Shown piece after piece: positions 1-54,198 of a stretch of 64,000 bases of DNA (position 1 is its first letter; every line of letters begins with the position of its first letter). The notes beneath the pieces were generated by a model, which was not told where the DNA came from, made no database searches, and saw only the letters and a program-made list of their open reading frames with translations. This DNA is from Echinarachnius parma. Lineage: Eukaryota; Echinodermata; Echinoidea; Clypeasteroida; Echinarachniidae. The stretch spans positions 42,572-106,571 of the forward strand of contig JBAMJV010003309.1 in NCBI GenBank assembly GCA_037951105.1. Direction: 5' to 3'. Both the position numbers and the translations under genes were made by a program.

Positions 1-718
1 GCAAAACGAAGTTCAAATTTGAAAATTCTAAAAATAGATGTTTATGACATTGATGACATCACACTTCCCCACTCTATACAGTTTTGGTCAAACTGAATTT
101 TAGCAAGCAAAACCTGCACCAATTTATTACAAACTAATAGTTATAACTCCATCCTGCTGCAAAGGGAGTACACAATTGCGATTGACTAAGTAAAAGTCCT
201 GCTATCATTCAAAATAAGTCGTTTAAGCTCAAGAGGGCGCCTTCTAAACACTCATCGGTTGCAGCCATTTAAAAAAATATATTGGAAATTTATTGTTTTG
301 TTGAAATAGTGATTAGATAGAGGGATAATCACAACTATCTAAAACTTATTTCGTATGTTTCTGAGAAGCGGAAGCATTTTTGTTTTAAAGATTTGAACGG
401 CTAGTTCAAAATAAACGAATAATTGTGAGGTCCCACATCTATTTCAAATGGTTATGTTTATAGGTATTTCAGCCATTTCTAAACCGATTTAGATCAAATA
501 AATGTATTCCGTCATTACAAATGTTTGCTTTTTCGATTTGACACTGAGTTTTTCTTTATCTCACAACAAATTATTTTGAGTGGCGCCCTCTATACCAAAA
601 CTCTTCTATCCCTTTAACAGTTAGATTGCAAATCGTACTGCAATAATTTGATGCATAGTAGCTATAATATGGTATATCCCTATTTGACTTGTTTTGTATT
701 CCCGATCAACATACATAG

Positions 719-835
719 TCGACTGCTCCTCTGGTTCACCCTGTCTAAATGGTGGATCATGTAACGATGTGCCCGATCCCGACGAATGCGATTGTGTGAA
801 TGGATATAGTGGAGATATCTGTGAAACAACTTCAA
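719..835 (+). CDS. EGF-like exon E1
   Basis: A 117-base exon encoding one EGF-like domain with cysteine spacing C-x5-C-x5-C-x8-C-x-C-x8-C. The core reads DCSSGSPC, LNGGSC, a VPDPDE linker, CDC and GYSGDIC, ending ETTS. The acceptor is the TAG at 716-718 and the donor is GTGAGT at 836. Both borders are phase 1, so the exon can be added or skipped without a frame change. It lacks the D-x-D-E calcium motif and the aromatic residue of the hydroxylation motif, so it is a non-calcium-binding EGF type. Such domains occur in extracellular or membrane proteins and act in adhesion or ligand binding. The parent gene cannot be named from one domain. Confidence 0.87.
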
Positions 836-2100
836 GTGAGTATCATATCATTTTGTTGGCTTAACAAATTGTAATCGTGAACATTAAAAAGGTTTATGCA
901 TTTTGTTTTACATTTATTGATATAGTTCTGATTATTTCCCTCTGATCAGGCATTGTTTATTATATTAGCATATCAACATATTATCGCTAGTAGGTGTTTC
1001 TAAAAAATTGTATTGATGTTTTAGTAGTTATCTTTATACAAAATGAACAATTGTTTGCATTCAAATTTAATGTTACAGACATTGTTTGATGTTACTGTTC
1101 GAAAATATGTTATGCTGTTTTAAAGAAATATTTCATCACAATGTAATTAGCTTTGTTAAATCAGCATATTGTTTTCCACGTCGTATGTCTTTAAAATATG
1201 TTCAGGTAACGTGTCCTTGAATAACTAGGGCTTATGTTTATATCACGTTATGTTTACACTTCAAAATTTGAATGAAAATCTTCCAGCAAGTGTTTGATTC
1301 ACACTATCTGTAATCGGCTGTAAAAAGGCCAATACCAGTTTGGGGAATCGCCCCCTCTCAAAAAATGAAATGGACGCTCTTATTACTAATCATGTGAAAT
1401 AATATGTTTTAACTATTAAATACGGGATGATACACATTTTGCCTGGAATCTGCCTACTAATTGATGTATTTGGTAAATTATAAAGTCATCTGTTGTGGAT
1501 TGATATCTCACAGATAATTGTATGTTGATATACAGCCTCGTGCGATGCGTGTTAATCATATGGCAAATGTGCACACTAAAATTCGCACGAGCGAATCGCT
1601 CGAACGAGCCTATATAATGTGGCCAACGTAGATGGGCCAAGCTGGCGGTGAACTTAGGCTCAATGTCAGCGACTGTCATAAATGTTTTAACTGATATTTC
1701 TGCATTTGACGATAATAAGGTTTGGGTTTTTCCACACACGCTCTTTTTTATGTTATTTCAATAATACTAATCAATTAGTTTGTCAATAAAGTTATTTCAC
1801 ACTACTGGCATTTCCCAAGGGATAGCCCCTCTTTTGCAAGCCAAATTTCAAAAGTTGCGAGATTATTGTCTTATATGAAAGAATATGTCATTTAATAGCA
1901 TGCCTGAAAAAATTAGGGCTTGAAATCTCCTTTTCGTGGAGTTTTAATATAGAGCTAAAACTAATAAACCATCGTCCCACGGTTAATTGTGCACTATATG
2001 TATATTCACCCAGTGAGAAAGTTCGTACACGGATTCCACGGAGTACCAAGACGCTATGCGTGACCCCTACGTGACCCGCGCTAGCTACGTGACCCGCGCA

Positions 2101-2106
2101 TATATA
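2101..2106. other. Empty insertion site of the MITE found in U2, U4 and U6
   Basis: U1 reads gcgcatatataacaatgg here with nothing inserted. The same flanks in U2, U4 and U6 are split by a 555-556 bp element with a TA duplication. This paralogous empty site fixes the exact ends of that element and its TA target. Confidence 0.9.
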
Positions 2107-3635
2107 ACAATGGCATGACCGAATACTGTACAAAATAACCAAACCTCGCTTAAACAGACTACATGTTATTATGTATTCTTAATTTTGAGATTTTTTCCCG
2201 TGACATACCTTTACAAATATCGGCTTCACAATACCTTTACAGGAATAAGTACAATAGTATTGTAACATTATGCTATTAAAATCAGTTAAACTCTTTTCTT
2301 GACCGATATATAGTTTGATGGAGAGACGCATTTATTTTTCATTCGTAGAATCCAAATTACAGGGCTGTTCGATCTGATTGTTTGTGTGTGTTACATACAT
2401 CCTCATCCGTCAACTGGAAACTGTTCAGACGTTTAAGCTGTATGGGACATAACATGCAATCACATTCATATTGGCTGTGTGATATCAGAATACTGTTTCA
2501 CAATATATCTAACTAAAAATCTATTCAAGATGTGTCCTTTGGTTTCATGCTGTAGTCTATAGAGATGGAATGTTATATTTAAATGAAGTTGTCTTGAAGG
2601 GATAGTTGAGTTCTGGTAAAGATAATAGAGTACATAAGCTATGACGTCATGAACATGTTTTTTTAATAGAATTTTTAAATTTGAACTTCATTTTCCGAAA
2701 GAGTATCAAAACAATGCCCAAATACCAAAAGCTGTATTGGCAAACGGCAAAGAAAATCAATGTTATAGTGCTCTAGTACATAACTTTATGAACCAGAGCT
2801 GCACAAAAACAGTGACTACCCATTGAAGTAAAATACATTTGGATTGGCATATCTCAGCCAATACTAAACATATTCAATTGATTTTTGGTATTAAGACATT
2901 ACTGTTGACGCTCTTTCGCAAAACGAAGTTCAAATTTGAAAATTCTAAAAATAGATGTTTATGACATTGATGACATCACACTTCCCCACTCTATACAGTT
3001 TTGGTCAAACTGAATTTTAGCAAGCAAAACCTGCACCAATTTATTACAAACTAATAGTTATAACTCCATCCTGCTGCAAGGGAGTACACAATTGCGATTG
3101 ACTAAGTAAAAGTCCTGCTATCATTCAAAATAAGTCGTTTAAGCTCAAGAGGGCGCCTTCTAAACACTCATCGGTTGCAGCCATTTAAAAAAATATATTG
3201 GACATTTATTGTTTTGTTGAAATAGTGATTATATAGAGGGATAATCAACAACTATCTAAAACTTATTTCGTATGTTTCTGAGAAGCGGAAGCATTTTTGT
3301 TTTAAAGATTTGAACGGCTAGTTCAAAATAAACGAATAATTGTGAGGTCCCACATCTATTTCAAATGGTTATGTTTATAGGTATTTCAGCCATTTATAAA
3401 CCGATTTAAATCAAATAAATATATTCCGTCATTACAAATGTTTGCTTTTTCGATTTGACACTGAGTTTTTCTTTATCTCACAACAAATTATTTTGAGTGG
3501 CGCCCTCTAGACCAAAACTCTTCTATCCCTTTAACAGTTAGATTGCAAATCGTACTGCAAGAATTTGATGCATAGTAGCTATAATATGGTATATCCCTAT
3601 TTGACTTGTTTTATATTCCCGATCAACATACATAG

Positions 3636-3752
3636 TCGACTGCTCCTCTGGTTCGCCCTGTCTAAATGGTGGATCATGTAACGATGTGCCCGATCCCGAC
3701 GAATGCGATTGTGTGAATGGATATAGTGGAGATATCTGTGAAACAACTTCAA
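3636..3752 (+). CDS. EGF-like exon E2
   Basis: 117 bases, phase 1-1, acceptor AG at 3634-3635 and donor GTGAGT at 3753. The protein is identical to E1; the visible difference is a silent TCA to TCG change in the first serine-proline segment. All six cysteines are present. The flanking introns are of A type. It is probably a functional exon, since frame and both splice sites are intact. Confidence 0.87.
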
Positions 3753-4972
3753 GTGAGTAACATATCATTTTGTTGGCTTAACAAATTGTAATCGTGAACA
3801 TTAAAATGGTTTATGCATTTTGTTTTACATTTATTGATATAGTTTTGATTTTTTCCCTCTGATCGGGCATTGTTTATCATATTAGCATATCAACATTCTA
3901 TCGCTAGTAGGTGTTTATAAAAAAATTGTATTGATGTGTTAGTAGTAATATTTATACAAAATGAACAATTGTTTGCATTTAAATTTAATGTTACAGACAT
4001 TGTTTGATTTTACTGTTCGAAAATATGTTATGCTGTTTTAAAGAAATATTACATCACAATTTAATTAGCTTTGTTAAATCAGCATATTGTCTTCCACGTC
4101 GTATATCTTTACAATATGTTCAACTAACGTGACCTTGAATATTTAGGGTTTATGTTTATATCACGTTATGTTTACACTTAAAAATTTGAATGTAAAAAGG
4201 CCAATACCAGTTTTTGAAATCGCCTCCTCTCAAAAAATGAAATGAACGCTCTTATTACCAATCATGTGAAAGAATATGTTTTAACTATTAAATACGGGAT
4301 GATACAAATTTTGCCTGGAATCTGCCTACTAATTGATATATTTGGTAAATTATAAAGTCATCTGTTGCGGATTGATATCTCACAGATAATTGTATGTTGA
4401 TATACAGCCTCGTGCGATGCGTGTTAATCCTATGGCAAATGCGCACATGGTAATTCGCACGAGCGAATCGCTCGAACGAGCCTATAGAATGTGGCCAACG
4501 TAGATGGGCCAAGCTGGCGGTGAACTTAGGCTCAATGTCAGCGGCTGTCATAAATGTTTGAACTGATATTTCTGCATTTGACGATAATAAGGTTTGGGTT
4601 TTCCACACACGCTCTTTTTTATGTTATTTCAATAGTACTTATCAATTGGTTTGACAAAGTTATTTCCCACTACTGGCATTTCCCAAGGGATAGCCCCTCT
4701 TTTGTAAGCCAAATTTCAAAAGTTGCGAGATTATTGTCTTATATGAAAGAATATGTCATTTAATAGCATGCCTGAAAAAATTAGGGCTTAAAATCTCTTT
4801 TTCGTGGAGTTTTAATATAGAGCTAAAACTAATAAACCATCGTCCCACGGTTACTTGTGCACTATATGTATATTCACCCAGTGAGGAAGTTCGTACACGG
4901 ATTCCACGGAGTACCAAGACGCTATGCGTGACCCCTACGTGACCCGCGCTAGCTACGTGACCTGCGCATATA

Positions 4973-5528
4973 TAGGGTGGCCCAGAAATAACGGAACGGG
5001 GCACTTCCCAAAATAAAGCAACAAAAGGAACATGTCCATTGGATAGGGTGTCCTTTCCAATGAACAACGATACCAAGAAAAGTAATTTTGGACGTGTAGT
5101 TTTTGTTGTAGGGCGCGTTGAGTGGGACCATGTCAGGTTCCTATTTTTTTCAATTTTTACTAAGTCAGTGTCTGATAAATTATACTTACTGCCCGCCATA
5201 CTATTCACCAATTATGTCCATTCTCTCGGCACCACTCGGCACACAGCTGACTGCACAAAAACAATGGTGTGTGGAATACTAGTACTCGCGTGTTCAGTCG
5301 TATGTAGGGCAATCAGTCTCATTTATCAGGCACTGACTTGGTAAAACTTGACAAAAATAGGAACCTGACATGGTCTCACTCAAAGCGCCCTAAACCAAAA
5401 ACTACACGTCCAAAATTACTTTTCTTGGTATCGTTGTTCATTGGAAAGGACACCCTAACCGATGGACATATTCATTTTGTTACTTTATTTTGGGAAGTGC
5501 CCCGTTCCGTTATTTCTGGGCCACCCTG
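4973..5528. mobile_element. Foldback MITE, mariner-type, copy 1
   Basis: A 556-bp insertion bounded by inverted ends that begin [C/T]AGGGTGGCCCAGAAATAA, with TA duplicated on each side. The ends extend into inverted arms of about 200 bp around a central segment of roughly 120 bp, so the transcript would fold into a long hairpin. The TA target and CAGGG-type end fit the Tc1/mariner superfamily. It has no transposase frame, so it is non-autonomous. Short frames reading GPP..CRSRS in this element are by-products of the inverted arms. Confidence 0.88.
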
Positions 5529-7094
5529 TATAACAATGGCATGACCGAATACTGTACAAAATAACCAAACCTCGCTTAAACTGACTACATGTTATTATGT
5601 ATTCTTAATTTTTGAGATTTTTTCCCGTGACATACCTTTACAAATATCGGCTTCACAATACCTTTACTGGACTAAGTACAATAGTATTGTAACATTATGC
5701 TATTAAAATCAGTTAAACTCTTTTCTTGACCGATATATAGTTTGATGGAGAGACGCATTCATTTTTCATTCGTAGAATCCAAATTACAGGGCTGTTCGAT
5801 CTGATTTGTTTTTGTGTGTGTTACAGACATCCGTCAACTGGAAACTGTTCAGACGTTTTGTAAAATAGGGACTGTCCCTTGAAAACATTGTTAAGCTGTA
5901 TGGGACATACCATGCAATCACATTCATATTGGCTGTGTGATATCAGAATACTGTTTCATAATATATCTAACTAAAATCTATTCAAGATGTGTCCTTTGGT
6001 TTTATGCTGTAGTCTATAGAGATGGAATGTTATATTTAAATGAAGTTAGTCTTGAAAGGATAGTTGAGTTCTGGTAAAGAGAATATAGTACAGAAGCTAT
6101 GACGTCATGAACATGTTTTTTTAATAGAATTTTTAAATTTGAACTTCGTTTTCCGAAATAGTATCAAAACAATGCCCAAATACCAAAAGCTGTATTGACA
6201 AACGGCAAAGAAAATCAATGTTATAGTGCTCTAGTACATAACTTTATGAACCAGAGCTGCACTAAAACAGTGACTACCCATTGAAGTAAAATACATTTGG
6301 ATTGGCATATCTCAGCCAATACTAAACATATTCAATTGATTTTTGGTATTAAGACATTACTGTTGACGCTCCTTCGCAAAACGAAGTTCAAATTTGAAAA
6401 TTCTAAAAATAGATGTTTATGACATCATTGATGACATCACACTTCCCCACTCTATACAGTTTTGGTCAAACTGAGTTTTAGCAAGCATAACCTGCACCAA
6501 TTTATTACAAACTAATAGTTATAACTCCATCCTGCTGCAAGGGAGTACACAATTACGATTGACTAAGTAAAAGTCCTGCTATCATTCAAAATAAGTCGTT
6601 TAAGCTCAAGAGGGCGCCTTCTAAACACTCATCGGTTGCAGCCATTTAAATAAAATGTGGGGATTTATTGTTTTGTTGAAATAGTGATTGGATAGAGGGA
6701 TAATCAACAACTATCTAAAACTTATTTCGTAGGTTTCTGAGAAGCGGAAGCATTTTTTGTTTTAAAGATTTGAACGGCTGGTTCAAAATAAACGAATAAT
6801 TGTGGGGTCCCACATCTATTACAAATGGTTATGTTTGTAGGTATTTCAGCCATTTCTAAACCGATTTAGATCAAATAAATGTATTCCGGCATTACAAATG
6901 TATGCTTTTTCGATTTGACACTGAGTTTTCTTTATCTCACAAAAAATAATTTTGAGTGGCGCCCTCTATACCAAAACTCTTCTATCCCTTTAACAGTTAG
7001 ATAGCAAATCGTACTGCAAGAATTTGATGCACAGTAGCTATAATATGGTATATCCCTATTTGACTTGTTTTGTATTCCCGATCAACATACATAG

Positions 7095-7205
7095 TCGACT
7101 GCTCCTCTGGTTCACCCTGTCTAAATGGTGGATCGTGTAACGATGTGCCCGATCCCGACGAATGCGATTGTGTGCCTGGATATAGTGGAGATATCTGTGA
7201 AACAA
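7095..7205 (+). CDS. EGF-like exon E3 (short VPG form)
   Basis: 111 bases, phase 1-1, acceptor TAG at 7092-7094, donor GTGAGT at 7206. All six cysteines are kept with the E1 spacing. It differs from E1 in having VPG instead of VNG before the last loop and in lacking the six bases before the donor, so it ends ETx rather than ETTS. Only E9 shares this form, although E5 and E7 sit in the same B-type intron context. Confidence 0.86.
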
Positions 7206-7854
7206 GTGAGTATCATATCATTTTGTTGGCTTAACAAATTGTAATCGTCAAAACTAAAATGAATCATGCATTTTGTTTTACATTTATTGATATAGTTTTG
7301 ATTTTACCCCTCTGATCGGGCATTGTTTATCATATTAGCATATCAACATTCTATCGCTAGTAGGTGTTTCTAAAAAAAAATTGTATTGATGTGTTAGTAG
7401 TAATTTTATAAAAAATTAACGATTGTTTGCATTCATATTTCATGTTACAGACATTCTTTGATTTTTCTGTTCGAAAAAATGTTATGCTGTTTAAAGGAAA
7501 TATGTCATGATAATTTAATTTGCCTTGTTAAATCAGTATATAGTTCTCCACCGTTCGTATGTCTTTAAAATATGTTCAAGTAACGTGTCCTTGAATAACT
7601 ACGGTTTATGTTTATATCACATTATGTTTACACTTACAAGTTTGAATGAAAATCGTGCAGCAAGTATTTGATTCACACTATATGTAAAAGATATTTCCCC
7701 TCTGCAAGTTAGATGTAAATCTTAATCTAAATATTACCGACATATACGATTGCCCCATTGATAACCTGCAAAAAGAGTGGAACATGTACCTTAAAACGAA
7801 CCATTTCTTACCCGAGTTCATGTGTGGCTGGTTATCAAGGAGTTTAAGGGAAAG

Positions 7855-7970
7855 TAACCATGTCCGACAAGCTAGCTTGCCGGACTTAGTTACTATTGTT
7901 AGGCTTGACGACGGGGAGTCTGACGTCATACGCATATTATTTGCACACATTACCGAAGCGGTCTATTGTT
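7855..7970. repeat. Partial palindromic element in U3
   Basis: Contains a hairpin around GACAAGCTAGCTTGCCGG and a right arm with ACGGGGAGTCTGACGTCATA and GCATATTATTTGC, ending near the GCGGTCTATTG motif. The same arm, with its inverted partner, occurs at about 51,545-51,708. It is repeated in U5 (about 13,420-13,535) and U7 (about 18,955-19,070), so it was present before the dimer was amplified. Confidence 0.7.
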
Positions 7971-9192: not shown

Positions 9193-9309
9193 TCGACTGC
9201 TCCTCTGGTTCGCCCTGTCTAAATGGTGGATCATGTAACGATGTGCCCGATCCCGACGAATGCGATTGTGTGAATGGATATAGTGGAGATATCTGTGAAA
9301 CAACTTCAA
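9193..9309 (+). CDS. EGF-like exon E4
   Basis: 117 bases, phase 1-1, acceptor AG at 9191-9192, donor GTGAGT at 9310. The encoded domain is the same as E1 and E2 and has six cysteines. It lies 5557 bp after E2, the period of the A+B dimer. Confidence 0.87.
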
Positions 9310-10531
9310 GTGAGTAACATATCATTTTGTTGGCTTAACAAATTGTAATCGTGAACATTAAAATGGTTTATGCATTTTGTTTTACATTTATTGATATAGT
9401 TTTGATTTTTTCCCTCTGATCGGGCATTGTTTATCATATTAGCATATCAACATTCTATCGCTAGTAGGTGTTTCTAAAAAAATTGTATTGATGTGTTAGT
9501 AGTAATCTTTATACAAAATGAACAATTGTTTGCATTTAAATTTAATGTTACAGACATTGTTTGATTTTACTGTTCGAAAATATGTTATGCTGTTTTAAAG
9601 AAATATTACATCACAATTTAATTACCTTTGTTAAATCAGCATATTGTCTTCCACGTCGTATATCTTTAAAATATGTTCAACTAACGTGACCTTGAATATC
9701 TAGGGTTTATGTTTATATCACGTTATGTTTACACTTAAAAATTTGAATGTAAAAAGGCCAATACCAGTTTTTGAAATCGCCTCCTCTCAAAAAATGAAAT
9801 GAACGCTCTTATTACCAATCATGTGAAAAAATATGTTTTAACTATTAAATACTGGATGATACAAATTTTGCCTGGAATCTGCCTACTAATTGATATATTT
9901 GGTAAATTATAAAGTCATCTGTTGCGGATTGATATCTCACAGATAATTGTATGTTGATATACAGCCTCGTGCGATGCGTGTTAATCATATGGCAAATGTG
10001 CACACTAAAATTCGCACGAGCGAATCGCTCGAACGAGCCTATATAATGTGGCCAACGTAGATGGGCCAAGCTGGCGGTGAACTTAGGCTCAATGTCAGCG
10101 GCTGTCATAAATGTTTGAACTGATATTTCTGCATTTGACGATAATAAGGTTTGGGTTTTTCCACACACGCTCTTTTTTTATGTTATTTCAATAGTACTAA
10201 TCAATTGGTTTGACAAAGTTATTTCCCACTACTGGCATTTCCCAAGGGATAGCCCCTCTTTTGTAAGCCAAATTTCAAAAGTTGCGAGATTATTGTCTGA
10301 TATGAAAGAATATGTCATTTAATAGCATGCCTGAAAAAATTAGGGCTTAAAATCTCTTTTTCGTGGAGTTTTAATATAGAGCTAAAACTAATAAACCATC
10401 GTCCCACGGTTACTTGTGCACTATATGTATATTCACCCAGTGAGGAAGTTCGTACACGGATTCCACGGAGTACCAAGACGCTATGCGTGACCCCTACGTG
10501 ACCCGCGCTAGCTACGTGACCCGCGCATATA

Positions 10532-11086
10532 TAGGGTGGCCCAGAAATAACGGAACGGGGCACTTCCCAAAATAAAGCAACAAAATGAACATGTCCATTG
10601 GATAGGGTGTCCTTTCCAATGAACAACGATACCAAGAAAAGTAATTTTGGACGTGTAGTTTTTGTTGTAGGGCGCGTTGAGTGGGACCATGTCAGGTTCC
10701 TATTTTTTCAATTTTTACTAAGTCAGTGTCTGATAAATGATACTTACTGCCCGCCATACTATTCACCAATTATGTCCATTCTCTCGGCACCACTCGGCAC
10801 ACAGCTGACTGCACAAAAACAATGGCGCGCGGAATACTAGTACTCGCGTGTTCAGTCGTATGTAGGGCAATCAGTCTCATTTATCAGGCACTGACTTGGT
10901 AAAACTTGACAAAAATAGGAACCTGACATGGTCTCACTCAAAGCGCCCTAAACCAAAAACTACACGTCCAAAATTACTTTTCTTGGTATCGTTGTTCATT
11001 GGAAAGGACACCCTATCCGATGGACATATTCATTTTGTTACTTTATTTTGGGAAGTGCCCCGTTCCGTTATTTCTGGGCCACCCTG
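10532..11086. mobile_element. Foldback MITE, mariner-type, copy 2
   Basis: Orthologous to the insertion in U2: same TA site, same inverted ends, same internal hairpin arms, 555 bp. It was copied with the unit and is not an independent insertion. Confidence 0.87.
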
Positions 11087-11933
11087 TATAACAATGGCAT
11101 GACCGAATACTGTACAAAATAACCAAACCTCGCTTAAACTGACTACATGTTATTATGTATTCTTAATTTTTGAGATTTTTTCCCGCGACATACCTTTACA
11201 AATATCGGCTTCACAATACCTTTACTGGACTAAGTACAATAGTTTTGTAACATTATGCTATTAAAATCAGTTAAACTCTTTTCTTGACCGATATATAGTT
11301 TGATGGAGAGACGCATTAATTTTTCATTCGTAGAATCCAAATTACAGGGCTGTTCGATCTGATTTGTTTTTGTGTGTGTTACAGACATCCGTCAACTGGA
11401 AACTGTTCAGACGTTTTGTAAAATAGGGACTGTCCCTTGAAAACATTGTTAAGCTGTATGGGACATACCATGCAATCACATTCATATTGGCTGTGTGATA
11501 TCAGAATACTGTTTCATAATATATCTAACTAAAATCTATTCAAGATGTGTCCTTTGGTTTTATGCTGTAGTCTATAGAGATGGAATGTTATATTTAAATG
11601 AAGTTAGTCTTGAAAGGATAGTTGAGTTCTGGTAAAGAGAATATAGTACAGAAGCTATGACGTCATGAACATGTTTTTTTAAAAGAATTTTTAAATTTGA
11701 ACTTCGTTTTCCGAAATAGTATCAAAACAATGCCCAAATACCAAAAGCTGTATTGACAAACGGCAAAGAAAATCAATGTTATAGTGCTCTAGTACATAAC
11801 TTTATGAACCAGAGCTGCACTAAAACAGTGACTACCCATTGAAGTAAAATACATTTGGATTGGCATATCTCAGCCAATACTAAACATATTCAATTGATTT
11901 TTGGTATTAAGACATTACTGTTGACGCTCTTTC

Positions 11934-14075
11934 GCAAAACGAAGTTCAAATTTGAAAATTCTAAAAATAGATGTTTATGACATCATTGATGACATCACAC
12001 TTCCCCACTCTATACAGTTTTGGTCAAACTGAGTTTTAGCAAGCATAATCTGCACCAATTTATTACAAACTAATAGTTATAACTCCATCCTGCTGCAAGG
12101 GAGTACACAATTACGATTGACTAAGTAAAAGTCCTGCTATCATTCAAAATAAGTCGTTTAAGCTCAAGAGGGCGCCTTCTAAACACTCATCGGTTGCAGC
12201 CATTTAAAATAAAATGTTGGGAATTTATTGTTTTATTGAAATAGTGATTGGATAGAGAGATAATCAACAACTATCTAAAACTTATTTCGTATATTTCTGA
12301 GAAGCGGAAGCATTTTTTGTTTTAAAGATTTGAACGGCTGGTTCAAAATAAACGAATAATTGTGGGGTCCCACATCTATTACAAATGGTTATGTTTATAG
12401 GTATTTCAGCCATTTCTAAACCGATTTAGATCAAATAAATGTATTCCGGCATTACAAATGTATGCTTTTTCGATTTGACACTGAGTTTTCTTTATCTCAC
12501 AAAAAATTATTTTGAGTGGCGCCCTCTATACCAAAACTCTTCTATCCCTTTAACAGTTAGATTGCAAATCGTACTGCAAGAATTTGATGCATAGTAGCTA
12601 TAATATGGTATATCCCTATTTGACTTGTTTTGTATTCCCGATCAACATATATAGTCGACTGCTCCTCTGGTTCGCCCTGTCTAAATGGTGGATCATGTAA
12701 CGATGTGCCCGATCCCGACGAATGCGATTGTGCGAATGGATATAGTGGAGATATCTGTGAAACAACTTCAAGTGAGTATCATATCATTTTGTTGGCTTAA
12801 CAAATTGTAATCGTCAAAACTAAAATGAATCATGCATTTTGTTTTACATTTATTGATATAGTTTTGATTTTCCCCCTCTGATCGGGCATTGTTTATCATT
12901 ATTAGCATATCAACATTCTATCGCTAGTAGGTGTTTCTAAAAAAAATTGTATTGATGTGTTAGTAGTAGTTTTATTAAAAAATTAACGATTGTTTGCATT
13001 CATATTTCATGTTACAGACATTCTTTGATTTTTCTGTTCGAAAAAATGTTATGCTGTTTAAAGGAAATATTTCATGATAATTTAATTTGCCTTGTTAAAT
13101 CAGTATATAGTTCTCCACCGTTCGTATGTCTTTAAAATATGTTCAAGTAACGTGTCCTTGAATAACTACGGTTTATGTTTATATCACATTATGTTTACAC
13201 TTACAAGTTTGAATGAAAATCGTGCAGCAAGTATTTGATTCACACTATATGTAAAAGCTATTTCCCCTCTGCAAGTTAAATGTAAATCTTAATCTAAATA
13301 TTGCCGACATATACGATTGCCCCATTGATAACCTGCAAAAAGAGTGGAACATGTACTTAAAACGAACCATTTCTTACCCGAGTTCATGTGTGGCTGGTTA
13401 TCAAGGAGTTTAAGGGAAATTAACCATGTCCGACAAGCTAGCTTGCCGGACTTAGTTACTATTGTTAAGCTTGACGACGGGGAGTCTGACGTCATACGCA
13501 TATTATTTGCACACATTACCGAAGCGGTCTATTGTTTGCATTCAAGATTTTATGTTAGAGATATTCTTTGATCTGATCGTTTGAAACATTGATATGCTGT
13601 ATGCGACATACCGTGCAATCAAAATTATATTAGCTATGTGATATTAGAATACTGTTTCACAATATTATAACTAAAATCTATTCAAGATGTGTCCTTTGAT
13701 TTTATGATGTGGTCTATAGAGATGGCATGTTATATTTAAATAAAGTCGTCTTAAAGGGATAGTTGAGTTCTGGTAAAGAGAATAGAGTACAGAAGCTATG
13801 ATGTCATGAACATGTTTTTGTTTTTTTGTTTTTTCAAATTTGAACCTCATTTTCCGAAAGAGTATCAAAATAATGCCCAAATACCGAAAACCGTATTGGC
13901 AATCGGCAATAGGCAATCAGTGTTATACTGCTCTAGTACATAACTTTATGAACCAGAGCTGCACTATAACACTGATTGCCCATTGAAGTAAAAAATTCAT
14001 TTGGATGGGCATATCATCCAATACTAAACATAATATTAATTTTCGATATTTAGACATTACGGTTGACGCTCTTTC
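11934..14075 (+). repeat. Array unit U5 (B type)
   Basis: B-type unit carrying E5. The introns match U3 (for example the CGTCAAAACTAAAATG stretch after the exon), but the exon itself has the A-type ending. Confidence 0.86.
12655..12771 (+). CDS. EGF-like exon E5 (A-type exon in a B unit)
   Basis: 117 bases, phase 1-1, acceptor TAG at 12652-12654, donor GTGAGT at 12772. It encodes the E1 domain with one substitution, DCVNG to DCANG. It has the ETTS ending and the NG of A exons, although the following intron is B type, which suggests gene conversion across the exon. Confidence 0.86.
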
Positions 14076-14773: not shown

Positions 14774-14890
14774 TCGACTGCTCCTCTGGTTCGCCCTGTC
14801 TAAATGGTGGATCATGTAACGATGTGCCCGATCCCGACGAATGCGATTGTGTGAATGGATATAGTGGAGATATCTGTGAAACAACTTCAA
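14774..14890 (+). CDS. EGF-like exon E6
   Basis: 117 bases, phase 1-1, acceptor TAG at 14771-14773, donor GTGAGT at 14891. The encoded domain is identical to E1, E2 and E4. Identity of both exon and introns points to very recent copying. Confidence 0.87.
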
Positions 14891-16084
14891 GTGAGTAACA
14901 TATCATTTTGTTGGCTTAACAAATTGTAATCGTGAACATTAAAATGGTTTATGCATTTTGTTTTACATTTATTGATATAGTTTTGATTTTTTCCCTCTGA
15001 TCGGGCATTGTTTATCATATTAGCATATCAACATTCTATCGCTAGTAGGTGTTTCTAAAAAAATTGTAATGATGTGTTAGTAGTAATCTTTATACAAAAT
15101 GAACAATTGTTTGCATTTAAATTTAATGTTACAGACATTGTTTGATTTTACTGTTCGAAAATATGTTATGCTGTTTTAAAGAAATATTACATCACAATTT
15201 AATTAGCTTTGTTAAATCAGCATATTGTCTTCCACGTCGTATATCTTTAAAATATGTTCAACTAACGTGACCTTGAATATCTAGGGTTTATGTTTATATC
15301 ACGTTATGTTTACACTTAGAAAATTTGAATGTAAAAAGGCCAATACCAGTTTTGGAAATCGCCTCCTCTCAAAAAATGAAATGAACGCTCTTATTACCAA
15401 TCATGTGAAAGAATATGTTTTAACTATTAAATACTGGATGATACAAATTTTGCCTGGAATCTGCCTACTAATTGATATATTTGGTAAATTATAAAGTCAT
15501 CTGTTGCGGATTGATATCTCACAGATAATTGTATGTTGATATACAGCCTCGTGCGATGCGTGTTAATCATATGGCAAATGTGCACACTAAAATTCGCACG
15601 AGCGAATCGCTCGAACGAGCCTATAGAATGTGGCCAACGTAGATGGGCCAAGCTGGCGGTGAACTTAGGCTCAATGTCAGCGGCTGTCATAAATGTTTGA
15701 ACTGATATTTCTGCATTTGACGATAATAAGGTTTGGGTTTTTCCACACACGCTCTTTTTTATGTTATTTCAATAGTACTAATCAATTGGTTTGACAAAGT
15801 TATTTCCCACCACTGGCATTTCCCAAGGGATAGCCCCTCTTTTGTAAGCCAAATTTCAAAAGTTGCGAGATTATTGTCTTATATGAAAGAATATGTCATT
15901 TAATAGCATGCCTGAAAAAATTAGGGCTTAAAATCTCTTTTTCGTGGAGTTTTAATCCACGGTTACTTGTGCACTATATGTATATTCACCCAGTGAGGAA
16001 GTTCGTACACGGATTCCACGGAGTACCAAGACGCTATGCGTGACCCCTACGTGACCCGCGCTAGCTACGTGACCCGCGCATATA

Positions 16085-16640
16085 TAGGGTGGCCCAGAAA
16101 GAACGGAACGGGGCACTTCCCAAAATAAAGCAACAAAATGAACATGTCCATTGGATAGGGTGTCCTTTCCAATGAACAACGATACCAAGAAAAGTAATTT
16201 TGGACGTGTAGTTTTTGTTGTAGGGCGCGTTGAGTGGGACCATGTCAGGTTCCTATTTTTTTCAATTTTTACTAAGTCAGTGTCTGATAAATGATACTTA
16301 CTGCCCGCCATACTATTCACCAATTATGTCCATTCTCTCGGCACCACTCGGCACACAGCTGACTGCACAAAAACAATGGCGCGCGGAATACTAGTACTCG
16401 CGTGTTCAGTCGTATGTAGGGCAATCAGTCTCATTTATCAGGCACTGACTTGGTAAAACTTGACAAAAATAGGAACCTGACATGGTCTCACTCAAAGCGC
16501 CCTAAACCAAAAACTACACGTCCAAAATTACTTTTCTTGGTATCGTTGTTCATTGGAAAGGACACCCTATCCGATGGACATATTCATTTTGTTACTTTAT
16601 TTTGGGAAGTGCCCCGTTCCGTTATTTCTGGGCCACCCTG
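16085..16640. mobile_element. Foldback MITE, mariner-type, copy 3
   Basis: Orthologous to the copies in U2 and U4, 556 bp, in the same TA site. One end base differs (CCCAGAAAGAAC instead of CCCAGAAATAAC). Confidence 0.87.
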
Positions 16641-17487
16641 TATAACAATGGCATGACCGAATACTGTACAAAATAACCAAACCTCGCTTAAACTGACTAC
16701 ATGTTATTATGTATTCTTAATTTTTGAGATTTTTTCCCGCGACATACCTTTACAAATATCGGCTTCACAATACCTTTACTGGACTAGGTACAATAGTTTT
16801 GTAACATTATGCTATTAAAATCAGTTAAACTCTTTTCTTGACCGATATATAGTTTGATGGAGAGACGCATTCATTTTTCATTCGTAGAATCCAAATTACA
16901 GGGCTGTTCGATCTGATTTGTTTTTGTGTGTGTTACAGACATCCGTCAACTGGAAACTGTTCAGACGTTTTGTAAAATAGGGACTGTCCCTTGAAAACAT
17001 TGTTAAGCTGTATGGGACATACCATGCAATCACATTCATATTGGCTGTGTGATATCAGAATACTGTTTCATAATATATCTAACTAAAATCTATTCAAGAT
17101 GTGTCCTTTGGTTTTATGCTGTAGTCTATAGAGATGGAATGTTATATTTAAATGAAGTTAGTCTTGAAAGGATAGTTGAGTTCTGGTAAAGAGAATATAG
17201 TACAGAAGCTATGACGTCATGAACATGTTTTTTTAATAGAATTTTTAAATTTGAACTTCGTTTTCCGAAATAGTATCAAAACAATGCCCAAATACCAAAA
17301 GCTGTATTGACAAACGGCAAAGAAAATCAATGTTATAGTGCTCTAGTACATAACTTTATGAACCAGAGCTGCACTAAAACAGTGACTACCCATTGAAGTA
17401 AAATACATTTGGATTGGCATATCTCAGCCAATGCTAAACATATTCAATTGATTTTTGGTATTAAGACATTACTGTTGACGCTCTTTC

Positions 17488-19611
17488 GCAAAACGAAGTT
17501 CAAATTTGAAAATTCTAAAAATAGATGTTTATGACATCATTGATGACATCACACTTCCCCACTCTATACAGTTTTGGTCAAACTGAGTTTTAGCAAGCAT
17601 AACCTGCACCAATTTATTACAAACTAATAGTTATAACTCCATCCTGCTGCAAGGGAGTACACAATTACGATTGACTAAGTAAAAGTCCTGCTATCATTCA
17701 AAATAAGTCGTTTAAGCTCAAGAGGGCGCCTTCTAAACACTCATCGGTTGCAGCCATTTAAAATAAAATGTTGGGAATTTATTGTTTTGTTGAAATAGTG
17801 ATTGGATAGAGGGATAATCAACAACTATCTAAAACTTATTTCGTAGGTTTCTGAGAAGCGGAAGCATTTTTTGTTTTAAAGATTTGAACGGCTGGTTCAA
17901 AATAAACGAATAATTGTGGGGTCCCACATCTATTACAAATGGTTATGTTTATAGGTATTTCAGCCATTTCAAAACTGATTTAGATCAAATAAATGTATTC
18001 CGGCATTACAAATGTATGCTTTTTCGATTTGACACTGAGTTTTCTTTATCTCACAAAAAATTATTTTGAGTGGCGCCCTCTATACCAAAACTCTTCTATC
18101 CCTTTAACAGTTAGATTGCAAATCGTACTGCAAGAATTTGATGCATAGTAGCTATAATATGGTATATCCCTATTTGACTTGTTTTGTATTCCCGATCAAC
18201 ATATATAGTCGACTGCTCCTCTGGTTCGCCCTGTCTAAATGGTGGATCATGTAACGATGTGCCCGATCCCGAGGAATGCGATTGTGTGAATGGATATAGT
18301 GGAGATATCTGTGAAACAACTTCAAGTGAGTATCATATCATTTTGTTGGCTTAACAAATTGTAATCGTCAAAACTAAAATGAATCATGCATTTTGTTTTA
18401 CATTTATTGATATAGTTTTGATTTTCCCCCTCTGATAGGGCATTGTTTATCATATTAGCATATCAACATTCTATCGCTAGTAGGTGTTTCTAAAAAAAAT
18501 TGTATTGATGTGTTAGTAGTAATTTTATAAAAAAATTAACGATTGTTTGCATTCATATTTCATGTTACAGACATTCTTTGATTTTTCTGTTCGAAAAAAT
18601 GTTATGCTGTTTAAAGGAAATATTTCATGATAATTTAATTTGCCTTGTTAAATCAGTATATAGTTCTCCACCGTTCGTATGTCTTTAAAATATGTTCAAG
18701 TAACGTGTCCTTGAATAACTACGGTTTATGTTTATATCACATTATGTTTACACTTACAAGTTTGAATGAAAATCGTGCAGCAAGTATTTGATTCACACTA
18801 TATGTAAAAGCTATTTCCCCTCTGCAAGTTAAATATTGCCGACATATACGATTGCCCCATTGATAACCTGCAAAAAGAGTGGAACATGTACTTAAAACGA
18901 ACCATTTCTTACCCGAGTTCATGTGTGGCTGGTTATCAAGGAGTTTAAGGGAAATTAACCATGTCCGACAAGCTAGCTTGCCGGACTTAGTTACTATTGT
19001 TAAGCTTGACGACGGGGAGTCTGACGTCATACGCATATTATTTGCACACATTACCGAAGCGGTCTATTGTTTGCATTAAAGATTTTATGTTAGAGATATT
19101 CTTTGATCTGATCGTTTAAAACATTGATATGCTGTATGCGACATACCGTGCAATCACAATTATATTGGCTATGTGATATTAGAATACTGTTTCACAATAT
19201 TATAACTAAAATCTATTCAAGATGTGTCCTTTGATTTTATGATGTGGTCTATATAGATGGCATGTTATATTTAAATGAAGTCGTCTTAAAGGGATAGTTG
19301 AGTTCTGGTAAAGAGAATAGAGTACAGAAGCTATGATGTCATGAACATGTTTTTGTTTTTTTGTTTTTTTCAAATTTGAACCTCATTTTCCGAAAGAGTA
19401 TCAAAATAATGCCCAAATACCGAAAACCGTATTGGCAATCGGCAATAGGCAATCAGTGTTATACTTCTCTAGTACATAACTTTATGAACCAGAGCTGCAC
19501 TATAACACTGATTGCCCATTGAAGTAAAAAATTCATTTGGACGGGCATTTAATCCAATACTAAACATAATATTAATTTTCGATATTTAGACATTACGGTT
19601 GACGCTCTTTC
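17488..19611 (+). repeat. Array unit U7 (B type)
   Basis: Third B unit, carrying E7. Its B-type introns and partial palindromic element (about 18,955-19,070) match U3 and U5, apart from a short deletion at about 18,832 in the AAATATTGCC stretch. Confidence 0.86.
18209..18325 (+). CDS. EGF-like exon E7 (A-type exon in a B unit)
   Basis: 117 bases, phase 1-1, acceptor TAG at 18206-18208, donor GTGAGT at 18326. One conservative change from E1: DPDEC becomes DPEEC. Like E5, it combines an A-type exon ending with a B-type intron. Confidence 0.86.
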
Positions 19612-20255
19612 GGAAAATGAAGTTCAAATTTGAACGTTCTAAAAATAGATATTTATGACATCATAGATGACATCACACTTCACCACTCTATAGTTTTGGT
19701 CAAACTGAATCTTAGGAAGCAAAACCTGCACCAATCAATTGCAAACTAATAGTTATAACTCCACCCTGCTCCAAAGGAGTACAAAATTACAAATGACTTA
19801 GTAAAAGTACTGCTATAATTCAAAATAAGCCGTTTAAGCTCAAGAGGGCGCTTTAACACTCATCGGTTGCAGCCATTTAAAATAAAATATTGTAAATGTA
19901 TTGTTTTGTTAAAAAGGTGATTAGATAGAGGGATAATCAACAACTATGGTTTCTGAGAAGCGGAAGCATTTGTTTACGATTTGAACGGCTGGTTCAAAAT
20001 AAACGAATACTTGTGGGGTCCCACATCTATTACAAATGGTTATTTCTATAGATATTTCAGCCATTTCTAAACCGATTTAGATCAAATAAATTTATGCTGT
20101 CATTTCAAATGTATGCTTTTTCGATTTGACACTCAGTTTTTCTTTATCTCACAACAAATTATTTTGAGTGGCGCCCTCTATACCAAAACTCTTCTATACC
20201 TTAACAGTTAGATTGCAAATCGTACTGCAAGAATTTGATGCATAGTAGCTATAAT

Positions 20256-20610
20256 AGGGTTTATCACCTGACTTTAATAGTAAATACAGTACATGCCGAT
20301 GCAGGGTTATAATTTGGTTTATCACATGACTTAGTAAATACAGTACATGCCGCTGCGGTGTTATATTTTTGGATATACCATGGCAATATTACACCCCTTG
20401 TGTTTGACAGTCAGACGATAAAACAGTTGTTCAATTTGTTGTCGGGAAAATCACGGAATATTCCTACCCTCGGGATTTCAAATGCTATTTCGTGAAGAAA
20501 ATAAGTCCCTCGACTTCGTCTCGGGACTTATTTACTCTTCCCTCAATAGCATTTTAAATCCCTCGGATATAATATTCCGTGCTATAACCTCCAACGCCAT
20601 TTAACAACAG
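20256..20610. mobile_element. Insertion with tandem repeat and palindrome, just upstream of E8
   Basis: The sister units run straight through this point, so about 355 bp has been inserted about 50 bp before the E8 acceptor. It holds two roughly 60-bp direct repeats (TAAATACAGTACATGCCG in each) and then an inverted repeat at 20,452-20,582, from CGGAATATTCC and AATGCTATTT to AATAGCATTTTAAAT and AATATTCCG, with a CTCGACTTCGTCTCGGGAC tip. No coding frame. The family is unknown to me. It may disturb the E8 branch-point region. Confidence 0.7.
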
Positions 20611-20659
20611 TATAATATCCCTATTTGACTTGTTTTGTATTCCCGATCATAATACATAG

Positions 20660-20776
20660 TCGACTGCTCCTCTGGTTCGCCCTGTCTAAATGGTGGATCA
20701 TGTAACGATGTGCCCGATCCCGATGAATGCGATTGTGTGAATGGATATAGTGGATATATCTGTGAAACAACTTCAA
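20660..20776 (+). CDS. EGF-like exon E8
   Basis: 117 bases, phase 1-1, acceptor TAG at 20657-20659, donor GTGAGT at 20777. All six cysteines are present; one substitution against E1 (YSGDIC to YSGYIC). The acceptor context CATAATACATAG resembles E12 more than the other array exons. Confidence 0.85.
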
Positions 20777-21894
20777 GTGAGTATCATATCATCTTGTTGG
20801 CTTCATAAATTGTAATCGTGAACATTAAAATGGTTTATGCATTTTGTTTTACATTTATTGATATAGTTTTGATTATTTCCCTCTGATCAGGCATTGTTTA
20901 TTATATTAGCATATCAACATTCTATCGCTAGTAGGTGTTTATAAAAAAATTGTATTGATGTGTTAGTAGTAATCTCTATACAAAATGAACGATTGTTTGC
21001 ATTCATATTTCATGTTAGAGACATTGTTTGATTTTAATGTTCGAAAATATGTTATGCTGTTTTAAAGAAATATTTTATAACAATTTAATTAGCTTTATTA
21101 AATCAGCATATTGTTTTCCACGTCGTATGTCTTTAGAATATGTTCAACTTAACGTGACCTTGAATAACTAGGATTTATGTTTATATCACGTTATGTTTAC
21201 ACTTAACAATTTGAATGAAAATCTTCCAACAAGTGTTTGATTCACACTATCTGTAATCGGCTGTAAAAAGGCCAATACCAGTTTTGGGAAACGCCCCCTC
21301 TCAAAAAATGAAATGGACGCTCTTATTACCAATCATGTGAAGAATATGTTTTTACTAATACGGGATGATACAAATTTTGCCTGAAAATATGTTCAGGTAA
21401 CGTGACCTTGAATATATAGGGTTTATGTTTATATCGCGTTATGTTTACACTTTGAATGAAAATCGTCCAGCAAGTATTTGATTCACACTATATGTAAAAT
21501 CTATTTCCCCTCTGCAAGTTAAATGTAAATCTTAATCTAAATATTACCGACATATACGATTGCCCCATTGATAACCTGCAAAAAGAGTGGAACATGTACT
21601 TAAAACGAACCATTTCTTACCCGAGATCATGTGTGGCTGCATAGGCGTACCCAGGGGGGGGGGGGGTTGGGGGGTTGAAACCCCCCCCCCCCCCCCCCCC
21701 ATTTGGCCCCAAAATGGCTGTTTTGGGGGGTTTGAACCCCCCCTTTTCAAATTTTAGCCGGTCTCGAGACCACTTACAAGTGGTCTCGAGACCACTTACA
21801 AGCGGTCTCGACCCTCATTAACCTGGTCTCGGCCTCGAAAATTTGCGAAGAAACCCGGTCTCGGGCTCGAAAATGTTGACATTTCTTGGTCTCG

Positions 21895-22915
21895 GCTATC
21901 ATAACACGAATATACCCTTCCAATAATATTGAAACAAATGGCAATTTCCGATGTTAAATTGCTAAAATGTTCAAGCTCGCTTCGCTCGGATTCTTACAAC
22001 CTCGGGTGTTTATATACTCCCTTCAAAACGAAATATCATAACACGAATATACCCATATAATAATATTGAAACAAATGGCAATTTCAGATGTTAAATTGCT
22101 AAAATTGTCAAGCTCGCTTCTCTCGCATTCTTCTATATATAATATTCTACAACCTCGGGTGTTTATATGCTCCCTTCAAAACGAAATATCATAACACGAA
22201 TATACCCATACAATAATATTGAAACAAATGGCAATTTCAGATGTTAAATTGCTAAAATTGTCAAGCTCGCTTCGCTCGCATTCTTCTATATATAATATTC
22301 TACAACCTCGGGTGTTTATATGCTCCCTTCAAAACGAAATATCATAACACGAATATACCCTTCCAATAATATTGAAACAAATGGCAATTTCCGATGTTAA
22401 ATTGCTAAAATTTTCAAGCTCGCTTCGCTCGGATTCTTACAACCTCGGGTGTTTATATACTCCCTTCAAAACGAAATATCATAACACGAATATACCCATA
22501 TAATAATATTGAAACAAATGGCAATTTCAGATGTTAAATTGCTAAAATTGTCAAGCTCGCTTCTCTCGCATTCTTCTATATATAATATTCTACAACCTCG
22601 GGTGTTTATATGCTCCCTTCAAAACGAAATATCATAACACGAATATACCCATACAATAATATTGAAACAAATGGCAATTTCAGATGTTAAATTGCTAAAA
22701 TTGTCAAGCTCGCTTCGCTCGCATTCTTCTATATATAATATTCTACAACATCGGGTGTTTATATGCTCCCTTCAAAACGAAATATCATAACACGAATATA
22801 CCCATACAATAATATTGAAACAAATGGCAATTTTCGATGTTAAATTGCAAAAAATTTCAAGCTCGCTTCGCTCGCACTCCGTATATATAATATTCTACAA
22901 CCTCGTGTGTTTATA
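21895..22915. repeat. Satellite with 443-bp higher-order period
   Basis: Monomers marked by CAAGCTCGCTTC[G/T]CTCG start at 21972, 22109, 22262, 22415, 22552, 22705 and 22858. Spacings are 137, 153, 153, 137, 153 and 153 bp, so a three-monomer block of 443 bp is repeated exactly. The two blocks share variants such as TTCCGATG and TCTCTCGCATTC at the same positions. More diverged monomers continue at 23,455-23,760 after a nested insertion. Confidence 0.9.
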
Positions 22916-23443
22916 CAGGGTGGCCCAAAAAAACGGAACGGGGCACTTCCTAAAATATAATAACACAATGTTTATGTTCATCGGATAGGGTGTCCTTTCC
23001 AATGAAAAACGATACCAAGAACAGTAATTTGGGTCAGGTCGTTTTTGTTTAAGGACGCAGTGAGTGAGACCATGTCAGGTGCCGATTTATGTCGATTTCG
23101 ACCTAGTCAATGCCGGTTTAACCGCACTCCTTGCCCGTAATATAATTCAGCGACCATGTCCATTCTCTCGGCACACGGCTGAGTGCACACTAACAATAGT
23201 GCGCGATGCTCAACGATATGAACGGCGGTTAGTGCGATTCATCAAGCGCTGGCTCAATACAAATTGACAAAAAAGAGAACCTGACATGGTGTCACTCACA
23301 GCGCCATAAAACAAAAACTACACGACCAAATTGACTGTTCATGGTATCGTTGTTCATTTGAAAAGACACTCTATCCGATGGACATAATACATTTGTTACT
23401 ATATTTTGGGAAGTGCCCCGTTCCGTTTTTTGGGGCCACCCTG
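22916..23443. mobile_element. Foldback MITE, mariner-type, copy 4 (diverged), nested in satellite
   Basis: 528 bp, ends CAGGGTGGCCCAAAAAAACG and its complement, TA on both sides. Uninterrupted satellite monomers read GTGTTTATATATTACCC at this point, which confirms the TA insertion site. It is related to copies 1-3 but clearly diverged, so it is a separate insertion. Confidence 0.87.
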
Positions 23444-24027
23444 TATATTACCCTTCAAAACGCAATAACATAACACGAATATACCCATACAATAATATCA
23501 AAACAATTGGCAATTTCCGATGTTAAATTTCTAAAATGTTCAAGCTCGATTCGCTCGCCTTAATTACGCCATATCATAAGTCATAAACGAATATACCCAT
23601 ACAATAATATTGAAACAAATGGCAATTTTCCGATGTTAAATTGCTAAAATTTTCAAGCTCGCTTCGCTCGAATACAACCTCGGGTGTTTATATATTACCC
23701 TTCAAAACGCAATTATATAACACGAACATACCCATACAATTATATATTCAGCTCGCTCCGCTCGCTTCCCCCTCCCCCCACTAAGAGGGGTTCTCAACCA
23801 ATGGTCTTGGTCTCGGCCTCGAAAAATGTTGACGGACCGTAGTCTCGGTCTTGAAAATGTTGAAGGTACTTGGTCTCGGCTTCGAAAATTTTACAAAATA
23901 ACCCCCCCCCCCCCCTTGAAAAAATCCTGGATACGCCACTGTGTGGCTGGTTATCAAGGAGTTAAAGTGCGCTCGTCGTTTCCATACTGGGAAGCCTCAT
24001 ATCAACATGCTGCTTCCTCTAAGCCAT

Positions 24028-24895
24028 GATTAGATAGAGGGATAATCAGCAACTATCTAAAAACTCATTTCGTAGGTTTCAGAGAAGCGGAAGCATTTAA
24101 AAAAACAAATTTGAACGGCTGGTTCAAAATAAACGAATAATTGTGGGGTCCCACATCTATTACAAATGTTATGTCTATAGATATTTCAGCCATTTCTAAA
24201 CCGATTTAGATCAAATACATTTATTCTGTCATTACAAATGTATGCTTTTTCGATTTGACACTCAGTTTTTCTTTATCTCACAAAAAGTTATTTTGAGTGG
24301 CGCCCTCTACACCAAAACTCAACTATCCCTTTAACAGTTAGATTGAAAATCGTACTGCAAGAATTTGATGCATAGTAGCTATAATAGGGTATCCCTATTT
24401 GACTTGTTTTGTATTCCCGATCACCATACATAGTCGACTGCTCCTCTGGTTCGCCCTGTCTAAATGGTGGATCATGTAACGATGTGCCCGATCCCGACGA
24501 ATGCGATTGTGTGCCTGGATATAGTGGAGATATCTGTGAAACAAGTGAGTATCATATCATTTTGTTGGCTTAACAAATTGTAATCGTCAAAACTAAAATG
24601 GTTTATGCATTTTGTTTTACATTTATTGATATAGTTTTGATTATTTCCCTCTAATCGGGCATTGTTTATCATATTAGCATATCTACATACTATCGCTAAT
24701 AATTATGTGTTTCTAAAAAATTGTATTGATGTTTTCGAAAAAATGCTATGCTGTTTGAAAGAAATATTTCATCACAATTGAATTAGTTTTGTTAAATCAG
24801 TTTATTGCTTTTCACGTCGTATGTCTTTAAAATATGTTCAAGTAACGTGTCCTTGAATAACTAGGGTTTATGTATATATCACGCTGTGTTCACAC
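24028..24895 (+). repeat. Array unit U9 (partial)
   Basis: Begins inside the unit at the GATTAGATAGAGGG stretch, carries E9 and continues into the downstream intron until CACTTAA at 24,899, where unrelated sequence starts. Confidence 0.82.
24434..24544 (+). CDS. EGF-like exon E9 (short VPG form)
   Basis: 111 bases, phase 1-1, acceptor TAG at 24431-24433, donor GTGAGT at 24545. Six cysteines. It shares VPG and the short ETx ending with E3 only. It is the last EGF exon I can see before a 29-kb stretch without any. Confidence 0.86.
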
Positions 24896-39940: not shown

Positions 39941-39947
39941 TTTCAGG

Positions 39948-41405: not shown

Positions 41406-41407
41406 AG

Positions 41408-54000: not shown

Positions 54001-54084
54001 AAACTGACCGATCGCATTTTATTTACAAAATATCATGGTCATCTGTGTGAATTTTCTTCATTGTTTGAAACTGATTATTTACAG

Positions 54085-54198
54085 ATATAGACGAATGTGC
54101 TTCTTCACCCTGTCAAAATGGTGGAACATGTAATGATGAGGACAATTCTTACTCGTGTGCATGTGAGGATGGATTGGCAGGAGAACACTGTGAAACAA
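54085..54198 (+). CDS. EGF-like exon E10, calcium-binding type
   Basis: 114 bases, phase 1-1, acceptor ACAG at 54,081-54,084, donor GTTAGT at 54,199. With the split first codon it starts [10 protein letters not shown], followed by [17 protein letters not shown] and GLAGEHC; spacing C-x4-C-x5-C-x8-C-x-C-x8-C. The D-I-D-E start and the C-x-D-x4-Y-x-C motif are the marks of calcium-binding EGF domains whose Asp/Asn is hydroxylated. It differs clearly from the array exons. Confidence 0.88.

What the first reader, a model, noticed from the sequence alone, without database searches (positions are those of the whole stretch)
1..24895. Young tandem array of interchangeable EGF exons
Nine EGF exons, all phase 1-1 with intact acceptors and donors, lie in a tandem array whose introns are almost as similar as the exons. 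Any number of units can be spliced in frame, so unequal crossing-over would change the number of EGF domains in the protein without breaking it. Known parallels are EGF-repeat and immune-type gene families of marine invertebrates. That this array is expressed or varies between individuals is inference.
Basis: partly seen in the sequence, partly recalled or inferred. Interest (0 to 1): 0.78.

Follow-up and report, generated by a model that had tools for sequence, protein, structure and literature searches.

The report
Recombining tandem array of EGF exons
In this animal genome one small protein-domain exon has been copied over and over in a row, and the copies have visibly swapped pieces while staying splice-compatible, so the locus could change how many domains its protein has; whether it is expressed or varies between individuals could not be tested.

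Summary
Nine phase 1-1 EGF exons (111 or 117 nt, six cysteines, intact AG and GT) lie at 719-24544. Seven more lie upstream on the same 106.6-kb contig: 16 of 16 intact. The unit is compound: a ~5.56-kb higher-order repeat holds two live EGF exons, an EGF relic and mobile elements. Exchange between units is shown: exon E06 is a chimera that switches inside the exon, E12 and E14 carry one class's exon in the other's flanks, and a PHI-type test gave 0 of 2000 permutations as low as observed. Copies differ enough to make assembly duplication unlikely. Intact frames are weaker evidence of use than they look: a sister array on contig C2761 keeps open six-cysteine frames in 7 of 7 exons whose donors are missing. 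Relatives lie on at least 11 further contigs; one locus is followed by SEA, EGF and a probable transmembrane helix. Expression and copy-number variation were not testable. Closest parallel: the LPA kringle IV-2 coding VNTR. New member of a known kind.

The parts
719..835 (+). array EGF exon E08, 117 nt, phase 1-1
   Evidence: PF00008
3636..3752 (+). array EGF exon E09, 117 nt
7095..7205 (+). array EGF exon E10, 111 nt
9193..9309 (+). array EGF exon E11, 117 nt
12655..12771 (+). array EGF exon E12, 117 nt; one class's exon inside the other class's flanks (conversion-like tract)
14774..14890 (+). array EGF exon E13, 117 nt
18209..18325 (+). array EGF exon E14, 117 nt; mosaic like E12
20660..20776 (+). 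array EGF exon E15, 117 nt; ~350-bp insert just upstream (about 20265-20615)
24434..24544 (+). array EGF exon E16, 111 nt, last of the array
   Evidence: PF00008
7720..7854 (+). broken B-type EGF exon relic, co-amplified with the live exons
13287..13419 (+). broken B-type EGF relic
18830..18954 (+). broken B-type EGF relic
21530..21639 (+). broken B-type EGF relic, truncated
4969..5533 (.). foldback-type element in the intron after E09; aligns to its copies in both orientations
10528..11091 (.). same element in the intron after E11
16081..16645 (.). same element in the intron after E13
15335..15824 (.). second, dispersed element inside the array intron; 27 of 46 matches to the intron query cover about this stretch on other contigs
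21990..22915 (.). 153-bp tandem repeat inside the E15-E16 intron
54084..54198 (+). diverged B-type EGF exon, intact (donor GTTAGT)
54780..54892 (+). diverged A-type EGF exon without a splice donor
55461..55571 (+). diverged A-type EGF exon, intact
56886..57000 (+). diverged B-type EGF exon, intact

Best explanation
The locus is an intragenic tandem array in a large multi-EGF gene. An ancestral unit had an A-type EGF exon (VDCSS...) and a B-type EGF exon; the B exon decayed, and the A exon with its introns was amplified to at least 16 copies, most recently as ~5.56-kb higher-order units. Recombination between units (unequal crossing-over and conversion-like exchange), at times with its end inside the exon, keeps copies similar and makes new combinations. 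Every exon is symmetric phase 1-1, so gain, loss or chimera formation keeps the reading frame. If all 16 exons are spliced they give 613 complete codons of nearly identical, back-to-back EGF domains. Shown: the copies, phases, splice signals, relics, mosaics and relatives on other contigs. Inferred: the order of events, that these exons are spliced into an mRNA, that unequal crossing-over still changes unit number, and that the gene ends in SEA-EGF-transmembrane as its relative on C9173 appears to.
For: 16 of 16 array exons keep both splice sites, six Cys and no stop. E06 matches E08 with one mismatch from 400 nt upstream to exon position 108, and matches E04 with one mismatch from exon position 83 to the alignment end about 540 nt from the exon start: the switch lies between exon positions 82 and 109. 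E12 and E14 carry the other class's exon sites between E10-like flanks. PHI-type statistic: 0 of 2000 permutations as low as observed, at each of two window sizes (14 of 16 units). Related A/B exon loci with phase-1 splice sites on other contigs, with separate tandem amplification on C2761. Family A exons: median dN/dS 0.59 over the 485 of 561 pairs kept, 34 distinct exons, donor-less ones included. Neutral simulation on the flank tree of 14 of 16 units: P(no broken copy) 0.0067.
Against: No transcript data. At half the flank rate P is 0.092, and a rate-free test gives 0.03-0.11. The exon substitution rate is not significantly below the flanks (binomial P 0.074). The simulation assumes one tree, which the recombination contradicts. 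The B relics vary less (2.2%) than 8 neighbouring live exons (3.9%). Donor-less A exons on C2761 stay open with six Cys in 7 of 7 copies. One neighbouring exon lacks a donor, and no start, signal-peptide or end exon was recognised on the contig, by eye on part of the + strand frames and by an AG/GT screen that was itself insensitive: it returned 1 of the 3 intact diverged exons. No processed copy with an exon-exon junction was found.
Confidence: 0.6

Rival explanations
1. Pseudogene array: the gene is dead or decaying, and the exon-intron unit is amplified as passive DNA; frames look intact only because the array is young and homogenised.
For: Donor-less A exons in the C2761 array are as intact in frame and about as similar (2.7% mean difference) as the live ones here (2.4%). 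B relics and a donor-less exon lie in the same locus. No significant excess constraint on exon rate. No other coding exons recognised on the contig, by insensitive means.
Against: 16 of 16 exons keep both splice sites, against 0 of 7 A donors on C2761. No breaking change in the array exons (simulation P 0.0067; rate-free P 0.03-0.11). Family dN/dS median below 1.
Confidence: 0.27
2. The exons are alternatives: one or a few are chosen per transcript, as in Dscam-type tandem exon arrays, rather than all joined.
For: Near-identical tandem exons with the same phases.
Against: Symmetric exons joined together stay in frame, so nothing in the frame enforces a choice; the copies are almost identical, so choice would bring little diversity. 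Selector or docking sequences were not sought.
Confidence: 0.08
3. Assembly artefact: one or a few units duplicated by the assembler.
For: Repeats are prone to it; the array is on one contig only.
Against: Flanks differ by 0.2-12% between copies, copies carry different insertions and exon lengths, and the longest similar pairs are ~97-98% over 4-12 kb; no N on the contig.
Confidence: 0.05

Closest known systems
[quoted passage not shown]
   Same: Tandem genomic units with introns, each adding a small disulphide domain in frame; 5.6 kb per unit with two short exons (passages of PMC11462820 seen) against ~5.56 kb with two live exons here; highly similar units.
   Different: There two exons make one kringle; here each exon is a whole EGF. 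LPA is expressed and has 1 to ~40 units per allele; here neither is known. The units here are compound and include broken EGF exons and mobile elements. The size match is probably chance.
Other coding repeats changed by unequal crossing-over (CR1 long homologous repeats, DMBT1 SRCR exons, nebulin triplicate block; recalled, not looked up)
   Same: Whole-exon units duplicated with introns inside a gene.
   Different: Different domains; polymorphism known there, untested here.
Multi-EGF genes such as Notch and sea urchin fibropellin (recalled; the fibropellin search returned 0 papers)
   Same: Many EGF domains on separate exons.
   Different: Domains that mark Notch or fibropellin were not looked for here; as recalled, the repeats there are old and diverged, here near-identical.
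Dscam-type tandem exon arrays (recalled)
   Same: Tandem homologous exons of equal phase.
   Different: No evidence of exclusive choice; copies nearly identical.

Membership tests
EGF domain (PF00008) | Profile match above curated cut-off, six cysteines in EGF spacing | tested here: met
   2 of 2 array exons given (30.4 and 32.1 bits, cut-off 21.5) and 4 of 4 diverged exons; 96 Cys in 16 exons
In-frame coding tandem-exon array of the LPA KIV-2 kind | Tandem units that include introns and add in-frame exons | tested here: met
   (by sequence; splicing itself not seen)
In-frame coding tandem-exon array of the LPA KIV-2 kind | Exchange between units | tested here: met
In-frame coding tandem-exon array of the LPA KIV-2 kind | Units transcribed and translated | not testable with these tools
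   no RNA or protein data; no processed copy found
In-frame coding tandem-exon array of the LPA KIV-2 kind | Unit number differs between alleles | not testable with these tools
   one assembly; no near-identical second copy of the locus among scored matches
EGF-SEA-EGF-TM arrangement seen at C9173 | SEA, membrane-proximal EGF and TM exons downstream of the EGF exons | tested here: inconclusive
   At C9173: SEA 2.1e-14 on the two exon frames joined, an EGF above the PF00008 cut-off, a hydrophobic stretch followed by KKR. On C3308 none recognised by eye or AG/GT screen, but the contig ends at the window's end; the genome search with SEA did not complete
Notch | LNR repeats, TM and ankyrin repeats with the EGFs | not tested
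Dscam-type exclusive exon arrays | One exon of the cluster per transcript | not testable with these tools
   no RNA data; frames allow joining of all

The most novel reading that the evidence does not exclude
The family is a cell-surface EGF-SEA-transmembrane receptor or mucin-like set in which each locus keeps one live EGF exon type in a recombining array. Unequal exchange would then produce individual-specific ectodomain lengths, with intra-exon crossovers making new domain variants, as a heritable recognition or stalk-length system.
Probability: 0.1. Interest if true: 0.75.

Novelty: new member of a known kind. Interest (0 to 1): 0.42.

Why it matters
It is a clear natural example of how domain repeats in proteins grow: whole exon-intron units copied in phase, with an exchange caught inside an exon. 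The sister array gives a built-in warning that intact frames in young arrays do not prove use. If unit number varies between individuals, it would be an invertebrate-like counterpart of LPA KIV-2 (the species was not identified), and with long reads it is directly testable.

Tried and rejected
Purifying selection inside the array: a neutral simulation favoured it, but two controls did not (relics, donor-less exons), so I do not claim it. Processed copies as a substitute for RNA evidence: a 22-base pattern across the exon-exon junction gave 24 matches with 1 or 2 mismatches and none exact; 24 of 24 carry AG at the junction place, as at an acceptor. An allelic contig with another unit number: none among the scored candidates (40 of 7044 scored, 40 of 270 scored); the same question for the upstream flank did not complete. 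Other exons of the gene on C3308: an AG/GT-flanked equal-phase screen outside the array left 5 candidates, of which the two phase-1 ones printed were one known EGF exon and one unremarkable frame; the screen missed two intact diverged exons, so it proves little. A calcium-binding regex matched inside the array EGF and was discarded; the O-fucose-like and O-GlcNAc-like consensus matches in 16 of 16 array EGFs rest on recalled motifs. Species was not determined: the one COX1 search did not complete. Paper searches for such arrays (3, 0, 1, 1 and 0 papers, listings only) showed none that by title or start of abstract describes this array, in an open-licence library only; some searches were side searches of which I saw listings only.
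Full report
What is there. The window is bases 42572-106571 of a 106571-base contig, C3308, in a 1.20-Gb genome of 14790 contigs. Nine EGF exons lie at 719-24544 on the + strand. The same exon occurs seven more times upstream on the contig (bases 19500-40486), so the array has 16 members over 47.6 kb. All 16 have a TAG acceptor giving phase 1, a CAA|GTGAGTA donor giving phase 1, six cysteines and no stop; 11 are 117 nt and 5 are 111 nt. Joined in order they give 613 complete codons and 96 cysteines without a stop, and 0 of 1000 random subsets or orders broke frame or cysteine count. An AG-free stretch of 44-55 nt precedes 16 of 16 acceptors; in one array intron about 11% of AG spacings reach 54 nt. 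The copies are related, so this is weak support.

Anatomy of the repeat. The unit is compound. Exon spacings mostly alternate near 2.1 kb and 2.9 or 3.46 kb, with irregular ones (2.3, 2.5, 3.5, 3.8 and 7.9 kb), and the pairs E09-E10, E11-E12 and E13-E14 form ~5.56-kb higher-order repeats, about 97% alike over 12.3 kb. The introns after E09, E11 and E13 hold a ~565-bp element (4969-5533, 10528-11091, 16081-16645) that aligns to its copies in both orientations. A second, dispersed element lies in the introns: of 46 matches to one array intron, 18 are on C3308, 27 on other contigs cover only about query bases 431-934, and 1 on another contig covers 949-1061 (40 of 7044 candidates were scored, so counts are lower bounds). 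The first ~430 bases of that intron matched C3308 alone among those scored. Eight copies of a decayed B-type EGF exon lie in the array. The four in the window read broken in all three frames; the other four were not translated on their own but align at 95-100% to one of them.

Recombination. Unit flanks fall into classes, and the classes upstream and downstream of the exon do not agree. E06 (contig 38255, upstream of the window) matches E08 with a single mismatch from -400 to exon position 108, and matches E04 with a single mismatch from exon position 83 to the end of the alignment, about 540 nt from the exon start; the switch thus lies between exon positions 82 and 109. E12 and E14 resemble E10 in both flanks but carry the other class's exon sites between about -63 and +124. 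Of 2278 pairs of 68 informative sites, 786 are incompatible, and incompatibility is far lower among neighbouring sites than in 2000 site shuffles (0.077 against a mean of 0.346; none as low). E15 and E16 were left out of these analyses and because of the insert upstream of E15 and the long branches of both. Exchange between units, at times inside the exon, is therefore shown. Whether it changes unit number today is inference.

Is it used? Evidence is mixed. Under a neutral simulation on the flank tree of 14 of 16 units, no broken copy has P = 0.0067, or 0.092 at half the rate. About 20% of single changes would break an exon, so 11-16 harmless events have P of about 0.03-0.11. Exon events per site are 0.137 against 0.22 and 0.21 in the flanks (binomial P 0.074). 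Against this, the 8 B relics are no more variable than 8 neighbouring exons (2.2% against 3.9%). In a sister array on contig C2761 (about 1.77-kb A+B units) 7 of 7 A exons have no GT donor at the expected place, with a stop soon after, yet keep six cysteines and open frames (2.7% mean difference), while 6 of the 7 B exons interleaved with or next to them are intact and one is frame-shifted. Intact frames in young arrays are thus not proof of use. The two arrays are reciprocal: A is intact and B decayed on C3308; B is intact and A lacks donors on C2761.

Family. A protein search gave 141 matches, 18 of them on C3308; the next best elsewhere is 82% identical (150 of 4966 candidates scored). DNA of the diverged exons at 53900-55690 matches 11 further contigs at about 64-86%, introns included, and no near-identical second copy was listed (40 of 270 candidates scored, and the list was cut). 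Across 34 distinct A exons (11 of 45 dropped as identical DNA) the median dN/dS was 0.59 (10-90% range 0.37-0.97) over the 485 of 561 pairs inside the set divergence range; donor-less exons are among them and pairs are not independent. At C9173 the EGF exons are followed on the same strand by a SEA domain (2.1e-14 on two exon frames joined; 0.0025 and 5.6e-8 apart), an EGF and a hydrophobic stretch followed by KKR. That these belong to one gene is inference, and no such end was recognised on C3308, whose contig stops at the window's end.

Comparison. It works most like the LPA KIV-2 coding VNTR, which has 5.6-kb units with two short exons and 1 to ~40 units per allele (passages in the abstract and background of PMC11462820; the rest of the paper was not read). 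It shares tandem exon-intron units, frame neutrality and highly similar units; exchange between units is shown here. Expression and allele-to-allele variation, which make KIV-2 what it is, could not be tested. I file it as a new member of the known kind 'in-frame tandem exon array', with use unproven.

Noticed in passing
C2761:1-12700 (L036-L037): Separate ~1.77-kb A+B EGF array in which 7 of 7 A exons lack the GTGAGT donor while 6 of 7 B exons are intact: the reverse of the window's array.
   Followed up: yes
C9173, L046:1528-6014: SEA domain, EGF and probable transmembrane helix downstream of family EGF exons, suggesting a membrane-anchored product.
   Followed up: partly
C1474:3505-6805: Matches at 3505, 4264, 5028, 6046 and 6805, mostly ~760 bp apart, possibly a third, B-type array.
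   Followed up: no
window 41497-41595: A further copy of the decayed B-type EGF relic, 94% alike, outside the array.
   Followed up: partly
window 38600-46600: Mobile-element remnants, all three under Pfam's curated cut-off: tyrosine recombinase-like (PF00589, 39107-39583 +), GIY-YIG (44456-45187 -), reverse transcriptase piece (45277-45702 -).
   Followed up: partly
window 47304-47914: 151-bp tandem repeat, 4 copies.
   Followed up: no
window 50770-53656: Inverted and direct repeats with long CA/TG-rich stretches.
   Followed up: no
window 58135-58992 and 63903-63979: Long C and G runs, up to 93 bases (97% matches to G).
   Followed up: no
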